DNA of 28,670 nt, from the IMG/VR virus record IMGVR_UViG_3300042367_000346, positions 1-28,670 of that record; one strand, 5' to 3'. Under the pieces are notes generated by a model. The model was not told the DNA's origin. It was given only the letters and a program-made list of their open reading frames with translations, and searched no databases. Source of the stretch: a virus. The position numbers were made by a program, and so were the translations under genes. Shown here piece after piece: positions 22,150 through 28,670 of the stretch (its first letter is position 1; every line of letters starts with the position of its first letter).

Positions 22150-22574
22150 GGATCGAAGCGTTCAGGCCCGAGCACCTGGATCGGCTGCAGCTGCAGCCGG
22201 CGCAGGCTTATTTCGAGCAGCAGTTCTCGCAGCCGGGCTACGCGAGCATGCTCTCCAATGGCCCGGCCTTCACGGCGCTCGACGGCGACGTGGTGCTGGG
22301 CTGCGGCGGCGCGGCCGAACTGTGGGGTGACCGGGCTTGCGTGTGGTCGCTGCTCTCTGACCGCGCCGGCCCGCACATGATGGCCATCACCCGGGCCGTG
22401 CGCGGGTTCATCCTGCAGCTGCCGTACCGCAGAATCGAGGCCTTGGTCGACCGGGAGTTCGAGGCCGGTCACCGATGGGCGCGCCTGCTGGGCTTCGAGT
22501 GCGAGACGCCGGGCGGCATGCGCAGGTTCACGCCCGATGGGCGCGACGTGAGTCTCTACGCGAGGGTCAGGTAA
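22146..22574 (+). CDS. GNAT-like protein in the internal virion protein A (gp13-like) position
   Basis: The 142-aa product begins MRIEAFRPEHLDRLQLQPAQ and ends with ALVDREFEAGHRWARLLGFEC followed by a small strand, a pattern of GNAT-fold phage proteins related to T7 gp13. A canonical acetyl-CoA loop (Q/R-x-x-G-x-G/A) is not evident, so it may have lost acetyltransferase activity and act in virion maturation, as T7 gp13 does. It overlaps both neighbours by one to four bases, sitting between nozzle and gp14-like genes exactly as in T7. Enzymatic activity is unproven. Confidence 0.7.
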   Translation: MRIEAFRPEHLDRLQLQPAQAYFEQQFSQPGYASMLSNGPAFTALDGDVVLGCGGAAELWGDRACVWSLLSDRAGPHMMAITRAVRGFILQLPYRRIEALVDREFEAGHRWARLLGFECETPGGMRRFTPDGRDVSLYARVR

Positions 22575-23017
22575 TGAGTGGATTCGAGATCGCCATCCTG
22601 GCGGCGTCCGCGGCCATGTCGGCTGGCGCTGCCGTCTACTCCGGGCAGCAGCAGAAAAACGCGGCCGAGGCCGAGGTGACGCGCGTGCGCCAGGCGGCCG
22701 ACGTGTCGTTGCGCGATGCGACGGCGCAGGACGAGCAGTTCCGCCAGGACATCCGCCGGCGCATCGGCCTGCAGGTGGCGTCCAGCGCCGAAGCCGGGGC
22801 GGGCCTCAACGCCGACAGCCTGCGCGAGTCGATCTACGGCGCCGAGATGGACTCGGCCGCCATCCGCTACGGCGCCATGAGCCGAGAGCAGGCGCTGAAC
22901 GACCAGGCCAACATCCGGTCATGGGAGGGGCGCGGCGCGAAGACGGCCGGCTACCTGAACGCGGCGAGCTCTCTGCTCAACTCCGGCTCCAGCTACTACA
23001 GCCGCAAGACGAGGTAA
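22574..23017 (+). CDS. Internal virion (ejection) protein, gp14-like
   Basis: The first 25 residues form a hydrophobic Ala/Gly-rich segment (IAILAASAAMSAGAAVYSG), then a long charged helix (NAAEAEVTRVRQAADVSLRD, DEQFRQDIRRRIGLQ), then VASSAEAGAGLNADSLRESIYG and a Ser/Asn/Tyr-rich tail. This matches the T7 gp14-type internal virion proteins, which leave the capsid during infection and help build a channel across the cell envelope; the hydrophobic segment could insert in the outer membrane. Length 147 aa. The ATG overlaps the previous stop by 1 bp; a longer upstream frame is a shadow. Confidence 0.85.
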   Translation: MSGFEIAILAASAAMSAGAAVYSGQQQKNAAEAEVTRVRQAADVSLRDATAQDEQFRQDIRRRIGLQVASSAEAGAGLNADSLRESIYGAEMDSAAIRYGAMSREQALNDQANIRSWEGRGAKTAGYLNAASSLLNSGSSYYSRKTR

Positions 23018-23020
23018 GGC

Positions 23021-25648
23021 ATGGCCCGCATCCCGGTCTACGAGCGCCGCATCGCGCAGGAAAGCAACGCGCCGATCGCGCGTGTCGGCGCCAGCCCTGT
23101 CGCGGCGGCGCTCCAGAACCTGGGGCAGGCCGGCATGCAGGCGGTCGACCGCGTGATGGCAGCCGACCAGGCGGCGGCCGAGCGGGCCCTGCGCGAGCAG
23201 GACAAGGCCCGCCGCGATGCCGAGGAACTGGACAAGGCGCAGGTGCCGAACCTGCTTGCGACCGGGCAGGTGTACTGGCAGCAGCGCGAAAACGAGCGTC
23301 TCCAGGCGTGGCGCGTTGGCGACCCGGACATGCGCGAGCAGATCGGGAAGGATGTCGACAAGTGGGTCGAGGAATCCACGAAGGGCATGAACACCCCGGC
23401 CGGGAAGCGCTACTTCCAGGAGCACGCGGCGCGCATCAAGGCCCGGCTGCAGACGGACGCCTACAGCCACCAACTCAGGGCCACGGCCGAGAAGGTGAAC
23501 GCCGAGAACGTGGTGGGCGAGGACAACGACGAGATCCTCGTCACGCAGTCGTGGCGCGACCCGAAGGCCGTGGCCGAGATCATCGCGCGGCGCGTGGAGC
23601 CGCTGCTGGCCCGCTCCGACATCGGCGAGGGCGAGAAGATCAAGCAGGCGCAGCGCATCAAGCAGCGCATGCTGCTGGCCCGCGAGCGTGCGTTCGTGGA
23701 AAACGACCCGAGCACTTGGCTGCGCGAGAACGGCTTTGCGACCACCCGCAAGGGCGAGCCTGGCGCCATGCGGTTCGGCGACGTGTGGAAGGCGCTGATC
23801 CAGCAGGAGTCCGGCGGCAGGCAGTCGGCTGTGTCACCGAAGGGCGCCATCGGCGTCGCGCAGGTCATGCCCGACACTGCGCCCGAGGCTGCGCGCCTTG
23901 CGGGCCTGCCGTTCGACGAGCAGCGCTACCGCAACGATGCCGCCTACAACGAGGCGCTCGGCCGGGCCTACTTCGAGAAGCAGCTGTCGGACTTCGGCGG
24001 CGACTACGCCAAGGCGCTGGCGGCCTACAACGGCGGTCCCGGGCGGCTGCGCAAGGCGCTGGCCGATGCTGGCCCTGGTGGCGACTGGCTGTCGAGAATG
24101 CCCGCCGAGACGCGCAACTACGTCGCGGCGATCACCAAGGCCGCCGGCCCCGGCGATTCAGCCCCGGCCGCGGAGGAGCCGCCGTCCGGCCGGCTGTCGG
24201 CCACTGCGGCGCAACTGGACCCCGACGCTGTCCGAACCCTGCGCGGCAATGCCGAAACCCGGGTGGCGCAGCAGTCGTCGCTGGCGCGCGCCGAAGGCGT
24301 CCGGCTGGTCGGCGACCTGATGGCGGGCCACAAGGACGGCCGCGTCGAGCCGGCGCCGCTGGGCATGGACTACTTCGACCAGACCTTCGGCCCCGATGGC
24401 GCGCGGGCCTATGCGGAGTACCGGCAGTCGCGCGAGATGGGCAGCGACATCGCGTCGTTCCGCACGGCCCCGGTGCAGGAGATCGAGGCCGCTGTGGTGG
24501 CGGCGACGCCCGCTGTGGGGCAGGGCTACGCGGCGGCTGATGCCCGCCAGCAGACGCTGCGGCAGGCGGCCGCCTCTGTCCTGCGGCAACGCGAGGCCGA
24601 CCCGGTCACCTACGCGGCGGCGACCAGCCCGGCCGTGCAGCGGCTGATGCAGCAGGTGGCGCAGACGCAGGACCCGGAAGAGCGCAAGCGCGCCAACGAG
24701 AAGCTGATCGAGGCGAGCCTGGCCGAGCAGCAGCGGCTGGGCATCCAGGCGCCGCGCATCCTGTCGCCGGCCATGGCCGACCGCTGGCAGGCGCAGGCGA
24801 TGAAGGCCGCGCGGCCCGAGGACTCGGCGAACCTGATCGCGGCGCTCGAGATGGAGTACGGGCGGCACTTCCCGCGCGTGTTCAACGAACTGGCGCGCGA
24901 GGGCAAGGTGAGCAGCGAACTGCTGATCATCCCGAACCTGCCGGCGCAGGCCGCGCGCGAGACCGTCTCGCGCTTGGCGCGCGTGAAGGAGTCCGATCTC
25001 GCGGCATCGGTGCCGGCAGACTCGCAGCGCGTGGTGAAGGATCGCGCGCAGGAGGCCGTCGTCGACTTCGTTCGCACCATCCCGTTCATGGGTGAGCAGT
25101 CAGTCGGGATGGTCGGCAGCTACGAGCAGATGATCCGCAAGATGGCCTACGAGCAGGTAGGCCAAGGCGCATCAGCGGACGACGCTGTCGAGCGGGCCCG
25201 ACGCATGCTGCTGGGCCACTACGAGTTCCGCGACACCGTTCGCATCCCGCGCGGCGTCGACTGGAGCAAGGTGCGCAAGGGCATGGGTGAGATGGTCGAC
25301 AAGGATCTGGCAGACATCGACGTGCCAGCCGACCTTGCCGGCGCCCGCACGCCGGAGCAGGCCCGCGCGACCTTCACCAGCGTCGTGAAGGCCCGGCCGC
25401 TGTGGCACACCACCGACGACGACACCGGCGTGCGCCTGTTCGTGGTGCGAGAAGACGGCGTGAAAATGCCCGTGACGAAGGCCGGCCGGCCCGTGACCTA
25501 CACATGGGAGCAGCTGCAGGCCGTGCCCGAGCGCAAGCTCTCGGCCTTGCCGCGCACCGGCGAGGAGTTCCGGCAGCAGCTGGGCCGTGAGCCGACCATG
25601 CTTGACCAGGACCGTCTCGCCTACGAGCGGTTGAGAAACACCCGCTGA
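23021..25648 (+). CDS. Internal virion protein with lytic transglycosylase domain (gp16-like)
   Basis: The 875-aa ejection protein carries a soluble lytic transglycosylase (SLT) domain at about residues 252-372: catalytic Glu263 in ALIQQESGG, GAIGVAQVMP (276-285), AAYNGGPGRL (334-343) and ETRNYV (363-368). It would cut peptidoglycan locally so the DNA channel can pass the periplasm. The N-terminal 250 residues are charged and helical; the C-terminal 500 residues are Ala/Arg/Gln-rich helical repeats, as in T7 gp15/gp16. The start is preceded by GAGGTAAGG and lies 3 bp after the gp14-like stop. A further giant gene follows after 10 bp. Confidence 0.9.
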   Translation: MARIPVYERRIAQESNAPIARVGASPVAAALQNLGQAGMQAVDRVMAADQAAAERALREQDKARRDAEELDKAQVPNLLATGQVYWQQRENERLQAWRVGDPDMREQIGKDVDKWVEESTKGMNTPAGKRYFQEHAARIKARLQTDAYSHQLRATAEKVNAENVVGEDNDEILVTQSWRDPKAVAEIIARRVEPLLARSDIGEGEKIKQAQRIKQRMLLARERAFVENDPSTWLRENGFATTRKGEPGAMRFGDVWKALIQQESGGRQSAVSPKGAIGVAQVMPDTAPEAARLAGLPFDEQRYRNDAAYNEALGRAYFEKQLSDFGGDYAKALAAYNGGPGRLRKALADAGPGGDWLSRMPAETRNYVAAITKAAGPGDSAPAAEEPPSGRLSATAAQLDPDAVRTLRGNAETRVAQQSSLARAEGVRLVGDLMAGHKDGRVEPAPLGMDYFDQTFGPDGARAYAEYRQSREMGSDIASFRTAPVQEIEAAVVAATPAVGQGYAAADARQQTLRQAAASVLRQREADPVTYAAATSPAVQRLMQQVAQTQDPEERKRANEKLIEASLAEQQRLGIQAPRILSPAMADRWQAQAMKAARPEDSANLIAALEMEYGRHFPRVFNELAREGKVSSELLIIPNLPAQAARETVSRLARVKESDLAASVPADSQRVVKDRAQEAVVDFVRTIPFMGEQSVGMVGSYEQMIRKMAYEQVGQGASADDAVERARRMLLGHYEFRDTVRIPRGVDWSKVRKGMGEMVDKDLADIDVPADLAGARTPEQARATFTSVVKARPLWHTTDDDTGVRLFVVREDGVKMPVTKAGRPVTYTWEQLQAVPERKLSALPRTGEEFRQQLGREPTMLDQDRLAYERLRNTR

Positions 25649-25658
25649 AGGGGGCACC

Positions 25659-28600
25659 GTGCCGCTGTATCTGGGAACCGACGAAGCCGGCACGACCGGC
25701 GCATCGCTGCAGGAGTTCGCGCCTACCTTCGGCCAGAAGATGAGCGCCGCGACGCGCGAGGCGTGGCTGGAGTCCTACGGGCCGGTGGCGACCGACTTCG
25801 TGCGGTCGCGCATGACCGAAGACAAGCGCCGCATCACGGCGGCCGAGGCAGAGGCCATCCGCCAGGATCGCGGCGGCGGCGTTAGCATGGTGCTGAAGCC
25901 GAAGGACAACGAGTACACGGCCGGCCAGTGGGCGACGATCGTCGATCGCCAGCGCGAGCTCGCGGCGGTGAAGGACGTTCGTGAGCGCACCCCGTGGGAG
26001 CTTGGTTCGGTCGCCCGCGGTGCCGCGATGTTCGGCGCCGGCATCGTGGACCCGATCAACCTGGCGACGGCCTTCGTGCCGTGGACCCGCACCATCGGCG
26101 CCATGCGGGGCACGGTTGCGACAGCCCAGACCGGCGCGACGCTGGGCGCCAGGACGGGCGCGCGCGCTGCTGTCGGCGCGGTGGATGGCGGCATCTCGAC
26201 GCTGGCGCTGGAGCCGTTCTACTACGCGGGCCGGCAGGCGCTCGGCGACGACTACGACGCGGTCGACTCGATGGCGAACATCGCGTTCGGCACGGCGTTC
26301 GGCGGCGGCGTGCACGTGATCGGCGGCGCGGCCGGCGATGCCTGGAGGGCGTGGCGCGCCAGGCCGGGCATGATCACGCCGGACCCGATGCGCGATGTTG
26401 TTTCCGCGCCACAGGGCGCCATCGTCGGCAACGAGACGCGCGTGCGGGTGGGCAACGAGTACGAGCCCGCGCGCTGGACGTTGGTGGAAGCCGACACGCT
26501 GCAGGCCACGGTCGACAAGGCCGACAACCAGTTCCGCGACCGCTCGCGCCCGGCATACCAGGCCGAGATCCAGCAGCGGGCCAACAACCTCGACCCGGCG
26601 CTGGTGCTGGCCGACTCACCCGTCATGGACATCGGCGCGCCCACGCTGGCGGCTGACGGGCGCATCGTCGGCGGCAACGGGCGCACGCTGTTCATCACGC
26701 GCGCCTACGAGATCGGCAAGGCCGGCGAGTACCGCGCCGAGTTGGAGCGGCGCCTCGCCGATCTCGGCATCGACCCGGACGCGGTGCGCAACATGCAGCG
26801 GCCGGTGCTGGTGCGCCAGTTCTCGCGCGCGGTCGACGTGAAGCGCGCGGCGATGCTGTCCAACGAGGGCGGTGCCACCGTCATGAGCCCGCTCGAACAG
26901 TCGAAGGTCGACTCCGAGCGGCTGGGCGACGCGCGGCTGCAGGTTGCGCAGGATGGCGCCTTGGACGGCGCCGAGAACCGGCCGGCGATCCGCAAGTGGG
27001 TCGAGTCGATGCCCGAGAACCAGCGCAACGCGGTCATGGACTCGGACGGCCGTTTGTCGCCCGAGGGACAGCGCCGGCTGTCGAACGCGATGCTGTTCCG
27101 GGCCTACGGCGACTCGCCCGTGCTGGGCCGGCTGGTCGAGGCCATGGACCCCGGCAGCCGGAACCTGGCGAGCGCCATCGGCCGCACGGCGCCGGTCGTG
27201 GCGAACATGCGCGCGGAGATCGCGGCGGGCAACCTGCACCCGCTGGACCTGGCCGCCGACCTGCAGCAGGCCGTCGAGAAGTTCAACCAGCTGCGCGAGC
27301 AGGGCGCGCGCGTCGCCGACTACCTGGCCCAGGTAGATGCCTTCGGCGATGGCCTCACGCCCGAGGCGCTGATGCTGCTGGAGTTCATCGGCCGCAACAT
27401 CCAGAGCCCGCGCCGCCTGATGGACGGCATCACCGGCTTCGTCGACCGCCTGACCGCGGCCGGCAACCCGAAGCAGACCGACATGTTCGGCGATGCCGTG
27501 GCGCCGGACAAAGGCGCGCTCCTGCAAGACGCCATCCGCGCTGCCGAGTCCGCCCCCGAGACGGCGGCCGAGGTGGCGGCATCCCTGGCCCCGGAAACCC
27601 GCGAGGCTGTCCTGCGCGCGGCCGTGGCGCAGTCCGTGGACGGGCGCGCGGTCGATGTGGACGCCATCGTCGGCATGGACCCGGGCCGGCGGACCACGAC
27701 GATCGAGGACGTGGAAGCGGCGATGGACCGCAACGTCTCGCCGGACGAGCAGCCACTGGCCGACGTGGAGTCCGCGCGCGCGGTCGAGGAGCGCAACGCT
27801 GCGGCGCCGAAGTGGCAGGCGCTGGAAGCGGCCGACCAGGCGCAGGCCGAGGCCGACGCGGCGCTGGGCGATGTGGTGAAGGCGGGGGAGCAGGCGTTTA
27901 AGTACTCTCGCGGCGAGGCGCCGGGCCAGAAGAAGGCGACGCTGTGGCAGGGCACCACCGCCCGCTTTGCGCCCGAGGAAGGCGCGCCGCTGGGCCGGTT
28001 CCGCTGGGACATGATCAACTCTGAGGGCGGCGAGCAGGCGCAGGCGTTCGGCTATGGCCACTACCTCGCGCAGCAGGCCTGGATCTCGCAGACGCGCTAC
28101 CGGGAGAGGTTGATCGGGCGCAAGAAGAGCGTGGTCACTTCCTTCGCCATCCCGGACGGCTCTGGCGGGGTGCTCACGCTGGACCCGTTTAAGACCGACC
28201 CGGCTTGGGTGCTCGCCGATGGAACGATCGTCCATGAAAGCCAGAACGACTTGCGGTTGGCGATGCTGGCTGCCGCGATCGCGCAGGTGCGCCTGCAGGG
28301 CTACGCCAAGGCTCGACAAACACTTGAGGCGATCCTTCGCGGCAACAAGGAAGCCGTCAGCAGAAGGCTTGCGGATATCGACAAGGTAAACGCCGGGCGT
28401 CGCGCCGAGATGGTCGACGCGACACCAGAGCGGCTGGCTGTTCTGCAGCGCGATATAAACGACTCGGCAAACTTCCGAGAGAAGCTGCTGGCCGGTCTTG
28501 AGAACGACGCGGCGCTTCTGGCTGCGCTGGACGAGGTGACTGTTGCGGCCTCGCCGACCACCAAAGTCGACGCCAATGGAAACACAGAAGTGTTTCTTGG

Positions 28601-28670
28601 CAATACATCCCTTGGCACCTATCGGGACGCGTCTCCAGAGCTTGCGATTTCGATGGCCAAGAACGACGCG
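25659..28670 (+). CDS. Giant polyvalent virion protein with DdrB-like ParB domain (partial, runs off the right edge)
   Basis: At least 1004 codons from a GTG with AAGGGGG 4 nt upstream; the frame stays open to the edge. Residues 100-235 hold hydrophobic Gly/Ala-rich stretches (LGSVARGAAMFGAGIVDPIN; NIAFGTAFGGGVHVIGG) typical of large ejected proteins. Residues about 255-600 match the DdrB-like ParB superfamily domain (VMDIGAPTLAADGRIVGGNG, with DGRIVGGNGRT at 333-343; QFSRAVDVKRAAMLSNEGG). An Ala/Glu-rich linker follows, then WQGT (763-766) and SEGGEQAQAFGYGHYLAQ (ending at 805), a pattern recalling ADP-ribosyltransferase-like domains of polyvalent proteins. Its place after the ejection genes suggests it is injected with the DNA to counter host defences or modify host targets (inference). 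Confidence 0.85.
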   Translation, partial: MPLYLGTDEAGTTGASLQEFAPTFGQKMSAATREAWLESYGPVATDFVRSRMTEDKRRITAAEAEAIRQDRGGGVSMVLKPKDNEYTAGQWATIVDRQRELAAVKDVRERTPWELGSVARGAAMFGAGIVDPINLATAFVPWTRTIGAMRGTVATAQTGATLGARTGARAAVGAVDGGISTLALEPFYYAGRQALGDDYDAVDSMANIAFGTAFGGGVHVIGGAAGDAWRAWRARPGMITPDPMRDVVSAPQGAIVGNETRVRVGNEYEPARWTLVEADTLQATVDKADNQFRDRSRPAYQAEIQQRANNLDPALVLADSPVMDIGAPTLAADGRIVGGNGRTLFITRAYEIGKAGEYRAELERRLADLGIDPDAVRNMQRPVLVRQFSRAVDVKRAAMLSNEGGATVMSPLEQSKVDSERLGDARLQVAQDGALDGAENRPAIRKWVESMPENQRNAVMDSDGRLSPEGQRRLSNAMLFRAYGDSPVLGRLVEAMDPGSRNLASAIGRTAPVVANMRAEIAAGNLHPLDLAADLQQAVEKFNQLREQGARVADYLAQVDAFGDGLTPEALMLLEFIGRNIQSPRRLMDGITGFVDRLTAAGNPKQTDMFGDAVAPDKGALLQDAIRAAESAPETAAEVAASLAPETREAVLRAAVAQSVDGRAVDVDAIVGMDPGRRTTTIEDVEAAMDRNVSPDEQPLADVESARAVEERNAAAPKWQALEAADQAQAEADAALGDVVKAGEQAFKYSRGEAPGQKKATLWQGTTARFAPEEGAPLGRFRWDMINSEGGEQAQAFGYGHYLAQQAWISQTRYRERLIGRKKSVVTSFAIPDGSGGVLTLDPFKTDPAWVLADGTIVHESQNDLRLAMLAAAIAQVRLQGYAKARQTLEAILRGNKEAVSRRLADIDKVNAGRRAEMVDATPERLAVLQRDINDSANFREKLLAGLENDAALLAALDEVTVAASPTTKVDANGNTEVFLGNTSLGTYRDASPELAISMAKNDA

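What the first reader, a model, noticed from the sequence alone, without database searches (positions are those of the whole stretch)
25659..28670. Giant ejected polyvalent protein with ParB-like and possible ART-like domains
The gene follows the channel-forming ejection proteins and codes for more than 1000 residues mixing membrane-like Gly/Ala stretches, a DdrB-like ParB domain and a WQGT ... GYGHYLAQ pattern. The latter recalls ADP-ribosyltransferases (usually H-G-T and G-x-G-x-Y-F-A), but the first His is Gln here, so catalysis is in doubt. Polyvalent proteins are thought to enter the cell with the DNA and protect it in the first minutes. This is the best candidate in the window for a new anti-defence effector.
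Basis: partly seen in the sequence, partly recalled or inferred. Interest (0 to 1): 0.65.

Follow-up and report, generated by a model that had tools for sequence, protein, structure and literature searches.

The report
Modular phage protein with degenerate ART
The window ends inside the gene for a giant protein that phages probably inject with their DNA; it is a chain of exchangeable modules, and the module in this phage has the fold of an ADP-ribosylating enzyme but has lost a key active-site residue, while a short recurring peptide between modules looks like the place where the chain is cut.

Summary
It carries a DdrB-like ParB domain (Pfam E 1.5e-24) and the WQGT...GYGHYLAQ stretch. That stretch is a true ART relative: a large phage family (HG[ST]...GEGAQAYG.GLYFA) is predicted to have the diphtheria-toxin/PARP fold, and the window clade is a branch with His->Gln in 6 of 6 members (His in 74 of 74 others scanned). 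The core is under purifying selection (dN/dS 0.09-0.36), so it is maintained, but ordinary ART catalysis is doubtful.

A tripeptide [FY][SAC]R sits at nearly every module junction (slot 1: 20/20 and 19/21; slot 2: 12/14 and 18/18). A separate lineage uses NYSI[AG] at its own swap points. I propose that these are processing sites, probably for the embedded HEXXXH zincin. Cleavage, packaging and anti-defence activity are inferred, not shown. New variant of a known kind (phage polyvalent proteins).

The parts
25659..28670 (+). polyvalent ejection-type protein, first 1004 residues, 3' end missing (contig end)
   Evidence: open frame; Shine-Dalgarno-like AAGGGGG before GTG; relatives L002-L014
25692..26384 (+). 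N-terminal phrog_3003 region (residues 12-242), Gly/Ala-rich, membrane-like stretch within
   Evidence: PHROGs E 4.4e-18
26466..26819 (+). DdrB-like ParB domain (residues 270-387) with the GNGR(T) motif at 26673-26687
   Evidence: Pfam PF18763 E 1.5e-24; motif shared with P1 DdrB and seven relatives
27903..27911 (+). junction tripeptide YSR (residues 749-751), start of slot 1; candidate processing site
   Evidence: [FY][SA]R at this place in 20 of 20 relatives, 12 different codon triplets
27945..28670 (+). slot-1 module, first part of an ART-fold domain of the Gln clade; continues past the contig end
   Evidence: profile match; model of relative L004; model of compact relative L141
27945..27956 (+). 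WQGT, place of the ART motif HG[ST], His replaced by Gln
   Evidence: Q in 6 of 6 clade members, H in 74 of 74 canonical members
28050..28073 (+). GYGHYLAQ, place of the second ART motif (G.G.YFA, catalytic-type Tyr kept)
23021..25648 (+). upstream neighbour: ejection-type virion protein with lytic transglycosylase domain
   Evidence: phrog_1044 E 9e-44; transglycosylase families at residues 255-376
22475..23017 (+). upstream neighbour: internal virion protein
   Evidence: phrog_418 E 2.7e-16; related to BcepC6B gp14

Best explanation
This is the first third of a virion-packaged polyvalent ejection protein of a BcepC6B-like podovirus. In its relatives the order is: N-terminal region, DdrB-like ParB domain and helical region, slot 1, HEXXXH zincin, slot 2, C-terminal internal virion protein (phrog_684). 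Each slot takes an exchangeable module. Here slot 1 holds an ART-fold module with Gln for the NAD-binding His, probably inactive as an ordinary ADP-ribosyltransferase but kept by selection, perhaps for binding NAD, ADP-ribose or a host target. Proposed working: the protein is made late, packaged with the other ejection proteins, cut after [FY][SA]R at the junctions (probably by its own zincin, in the capsid or in the host), and the released pieces act in the first minutes of infection. Shown by sequence: backbone, slots, junction peptide, His->Gln, selection on the core. Predicted from models of relatives: ART fold. Inferred: packaging, cleavage and which protease does it, function of each module, anti-defence role.
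For: ddrB-ParB domain. Gene order as in BcepC6B; the C-terminal part of relatives matches phrog_684 'virion structural protein' (E 5e-189) and BcepC6B gp17, a free protein of 864 aa. Different modules in the same two slots. ART relationship. His->Gln fixed in the clade and core dN/dS 0.09-0.36. Junction peptide at 20/20, 19/21, 12/14 and 18/18 junctions against a background of 0.0013 per residue, with 11-14 different codon triplets per junction; it also parts two modules inside one slot in L022 and L032. An independent lineage swaps modules exactly at NYSI[AG]. P1 DdrB, which has the same ParB domain, is found in virions (PMC9024508) and is reported to be cut to about 76 kDa (PMC5512222).
Against: No virion, cleavage or activity data for this family. 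The zincin and slot 2 are not in the window itself. Phage N4 virion RNA polymerase, also with an MPTase domain, is packaged uncut (PMC5512222). [FY][SAC]R also occurs away from junctions (56 of 109's count lie outside the two slot-1 windows, many of these at slot 2), so the tripeptide alone cannot be the whole signal. Two slot-1 ends lack it (L033 YSL, L035 YAQ).
Confidence: 0.6

Rival explanations
1. The junction peptides are not cut; they are hinges, or the preferred points at which modules are exchanged between phages, and the protein acts as one chain.
For: Swap boundaries coincide with the peptide, as recombination at a short homology would give; N4 virion RNA polymerase is packaged uncut; the tripeptide is not confined to junctions.
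Against: Many different synonymous codon triplets encode the peptide, so what is kept is the protein sequence, not a DNA site; empty slots keep one copy.
Confidence: 0.3
2. The slot-1 module of this phage is a fully active ART (or NADase) in spite of the Gln, and modifies a host target on entry.
For: ART fold predicted; second motif with Tyr kept; core under purifying selection. ARTs without the classical third Glu are known to be active (own knowledge).
Against: His is invariant in 74 of 74 canonical members scanned and is replaced in all six of this clade; PARP9, with Gln at this place, is regarded as inactive alone (own knowledge).
Confidence: 0.2
3. The WQGT domain is a decaying relic on its way to deletion.
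For: L015 keeps only GEAPGQKKATLWQG followed by the downstream backbone, an in-frame loss of the domain; L010 has a similar HGT scar.
Against: Five other members keep the domain open over 600-770 aa or to their contig end; core dN/dS 0.09-0.36, with 49 invariant columns of 98, WQGT among them.
Confidence: 0.08

Closest known systems
Phage polyvalent proteins (Iyer et al. 2017, PMC5512222)
   Same: DdrB-like ParB, ART, PBECR and HEXXXH zincin domains in one chain; context of virion genes; variable module make-up; proposed autoprocessing
   Different: The passages read name no junction peptide and no fixed pair of exchange slots; the Gln-for-His ART clade is not described there
ART-PolyVal (Pfam PF18760) and the H-Y-E ARTs (diphtheria toxin, PARP1, tankyrase)
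   Same: Predicted fold and strand order of a compact relative; 46 of 52 canonical relatives match ART-PolyVal and two match PARP
   Different: The window protein itself matches no ART model; His->Gln in its clade; Asn at the place of the third acidic residue throughout the family; large insertions
P1 DdrB
   Same: DdrB-like ParB domain and following region (about 31% identity over residues 291-587); virion head protein; C-terminal zincin
   Different: P1 DdrB has an HEXXH zincin (HELGH), no ART module, and no [FY][SAC]R tripeptide
BcepC6B gp17
   Same: Free-standing relative of the C-terminal part of the relatives (E 4e-43), same place in the gene order
   Different: A separate 864-aa protein without ParB, ART or zincin parts
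Cyanophage A4 pre-ejectosome protein (PDB 9k3a chain B)
   Same: Best structural match of the compact ART relative: Z 10.6, 143 residues, rmsd 4.2; a protein of an ejection apparatus
   Different: No sequence match; no paper found in the library

Membership tests
Phage polyvalent proteins | Several unrelated effector-type domains in one chain | tested here: met
   ddrB-ParB plus ART-fold module in the window; zincin and further modules in complete relatives
Phage polyvalent proteins | Packaged in the virion and injected | not testable with these tools
   Inferred from gene order and from the C-terminal phrog_684 region of relatives
DdrB-like ParB domain | Profile match above the curated cut-off | tested here: met
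   86.9 bits, cut-off 27.6
DdrB-like ParB domain | Conserved active-site-type Arg (GNGR) | tested here: met
   GNGRT at residues 339-343, also in P1 DdrB and seven relatives; that this is the Arg meant by Iyer et al. is my reading
ART superfamily (H-Y-E/D class) | ART fold | tested here: met
   Predicted models of relatives only: L004 hits ART-PolyVal-like phage models; compact L141 aligns with diphtheria toxin, PARP1, tankyrase, MbcT, NatT, ParT at Z about 7-8
ART superfamily (H-Y-E/D class) | His in strand 1 | tested here: not met
   Gln in all six members of the clade; His in 74 of 74 canonical relatives
ART superfamily (H-Y-E/D class) | Tyr in strand 2 | tested here: met
   GYGHY
ART superfamily (H-Y-E/D class) | Acidic residue (E/D) in strand 5 | tested here: not met
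   Asn in L003, L004, L006 and L008 and in the 26 canonical members in which the pattern found it; beyond the contig end in the window itself
ART superfamily (H-Y-E/D class) | Transfers ADP-ribose from NAD | not testable with these tools
   Needs a biochemical assay
ART-PolyVal (PF18760) | Profile match above the curated cut-off | tested here: not met
   No match for the window protein or for L003's WQGT domain; canonical relatives match (46 of 52)
HEXXXH zincin (MPTase) of polyvalent proteins | HEXXXH motif with a downstream Glu | tested here: met
   Relatives only: HEVGVH invariant in 13, with invariant EEQLAYLVQ downstream; not reached in the window; zincin fold not predicted here

The most novel reading that the evidence does not exclude
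Phage polyvalent proteins are self-cutting cassette polyproteins: each lineage punctuates its modules with its own short peptide ([FY]SR here, NYSI[AG] or RFQP elsewhere) that its embedded zincin reads, so that modules can be swapped between phages as units that are already cut correctly.
Probability: 0.4. Interest if true: 0.78.

Novelty: new variant of a known kind. Interest (0 to 1): 0.55.

Why it matters
Polyvalent proteins were predicted in 2017 to be cut by their own peptidases, but I found no cut signal named in the passages of that paper that I read. A concrete peptide at nearly every junction in one family, with a different one in an independent lineage, makes the prediction testable with one mutant or one virion proteome, and gives a practical way to split many unannotated giant phage proteins into modules. 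The Gln-for-His ART clade is a natural case of an ART fold kept by selection after loss of a residue that is otherwise invariant in its family.

Tried and rejected
Direct search of residues 738-1004 against PDB sequences gave only chance matches, mostly fluorescent proteins, and none among annotated phages. Profiles A2 and A7 against PDB sequences gave nothing credible. Fold search of the 595-aa L004 model in the PDB was filled by long insert helices and listed no ART; the compact relative was used instead. Its plain Foldseek run listed no ART with a meaningful E-value; the ART matches come from the VIA second look, where most Z lie near 7-8, so I rest on their consistency and on the residue register, not on any one score. 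Within-protein tripeptide counts alone did not single out the junction peptide. P1 DdrB has LSR at residue 720 (78.6-kDa fragment against the reported 76 kDa), too weak to use. The hhalign value for A2 against A7 is inflated because A2 holds a canonical row; I use A5. One Pfam query used a wrong short stretch and is void. PADLOC: no match. The tree is midpoint-rooted on the long Gln branch: it shows that the clade is monophyletic, not where it attaches.

Full report
What is there. The frame 25659-28670 (+) codes for 1004 residues from a GTG behind AAGGGGG and runs off the end of a 28,670-base IMG/VR fragment. Pfam finds only ddrB-ParB (residues 270-387, E 1.5e-24); PHROGs adds phrog_3003 (12-242) and phrog_5143 (289-632). 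Upstream lie genes of a tail protein, an internal virion protein and a transglycosylase-bearing virion protein. The tail protein is 41% identical to that of Burkholderia phage BcepC6B, whose cluster has the same order.

Relatives and the missing part. Thirteen loci encode relatives of the whole fragment. The complete proteins nearest in make-up (L003, L006, L008) are 2704-2766 aa. After the region present in the window they carry a HEXXXH zincin (HEVGVH, invariant in 13 sequences) and a C-terminal phrog_684 'virion structural protein' region, homologous to BcepC6B gp17, a free protein. The window thus holds about 37% of the protein; everything about the zincin, slot 2 and the C-terminal part is inferred from relatives.

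Two module slots. The backbone is shared, but between AG[DE]QAFKYSR and the zincin (slot 1), and between the zincin and YSRGETPDPST (slot 2), relatives differ. Slot 1: the WQGT domain (window, L003, L004, L006-L008), a canonical HGT member of the same family (L014), ART-PolyVal (L012, L013, L024, L033), PBECR5 RNase (L002), ParB-like (L009), RadC-like (L041, by inspection), large unassigned modules (L022, L032, L035, L036), or nothing (L005, L019). Slot 2: ART-PolyVal, ParB-like (by inspection), acetyltransferase-like (L033, by inspection), or nothing. L015 and L010 carry in-frame deletion scars that begin inside an ART.

The ART question. The WQGT domain belongs to a large phage family HG[ST]...GEGAQAYG.GLYFA...NYVVF: 583 of 600 pattern-matched stretches in IMG/VR encode relatives. 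Window-type sequences alone match the canonical profile with prob 96, E 2.8e-9. 46 of 52 canonical members match ART-PolyVal and two match PARP. The window-type model (L004, pLDDT 84) hits ART-PolyVal-like phage models. The compact relative L141 (pLDDT 90) aligns with a cyanophage ejectosome protein (Z 10.6) and then with diphtheria toxin, tankyrase, PARP1, MbcT, NatT and ParT. Taking the ends of those alignments as register, H7 falls on PARP1 His862 and N236 on PARP1 Glu988; this register is my inference, as no residue-level alignment was printed. His is present in 74 of 74 canonical members scanned, and Asn at the third position in the 26 in which my pattern found it. The window clade has Gln instead of His in all six members, found in this slot only. 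Nei-Gojobori dN/dS for the core is 0.09-0.36 where dS is not saturated, lower than for the rest of the domain. So: ART relative yes, working ART doubtful, maintained by selection yes.

Junction peptide. [FY][SAC]R lies at the start of slot 1 in 20/20, its end in 19/21, the start of slot 2 in 12/14 and its end in 18/18 relatives, against a background of 0.0013 per residue. Four further proteins failed my anchor pattern at the start of slot 2 but show FSR or YAR there by eye. In proteins with an empty slot the windows of its two ends overlap, so one copy is counted at both. The sequences are related, so the binomial p-values overstate independence; the stronger points are that unrelated modules end in the same peptide and that 11-14 different codon triplets encode it at each junction. 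Overall the proteins hold 109 copies where composition predicts 39. The peptide also parts two modules within one slot in L022 and L032. In an independent lineage (L124, L149, L163) NYSI[AG] recurs four or five times, and L149 and L163, 86.6% identical up to residue 1575, switch to different modules at this peptide and rejoin at the next. Other proteins repeat RFQP or FS[IV]S.

Interpretation. Iyer et al. (PMC5512222) proposed that embedded zincins free the domains of polyvalent proteins; the passages I read name no cut site. The simplest reading is that these peptides are the cut sites. Against it: N4 virion RNA polymerase is packaged uncut, the tripeptide is not restricted to junctions, and no cleavage data exist. 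I put 0.6 on the overall explanation and 0.4 on the cassette-polyprotein reading in full.

Noticed in passing
window:10527-11924 (+): Fusion of a ParB-like domain (residues 29-172) with a DNA methyltransferase (phrog_498, E 6e-164).
   Followed up: no
L022, L035, L036 (slot 1): A module of about 620-880 aa (VVWANRGKGVTSQKAAKLKEGANYM...) shared by three relatives; no Pfam match in L022 or L036 apart from an ART-PolyVal in slot 2 of L022.
   Followed up: partly
L180, L181, L182: Relatives of the zincin region on short contigs of MAGs labelled Opitutae and Comamonadaceae, with a RadC-like module and SR-containing junctions (AYAR, FRSR, ALSR, KYSR); possibly phage contigs binned with bacteria.
   Followed up: partly
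L124, L149, L163: A separate polyvalent lineage with NYSI[AG] at each module junction and a clean module exchange between L149 and L163.
   Followed up: partly
PDB 9k3a chain B, residues 1420-1601: The cyanophage A4 pre-ejectosome protein appears to contain an ART-like domain (Z 10.6 to the L141 model); not examined further.
   Followed up: no
L014, L066, L095, L100-L179: The large canonical family keeps His and Tyr but has Asn where PARPs have the catalytic Glu, wherever the third motif was found; its chemistry is unknown.
   Followed up: partly
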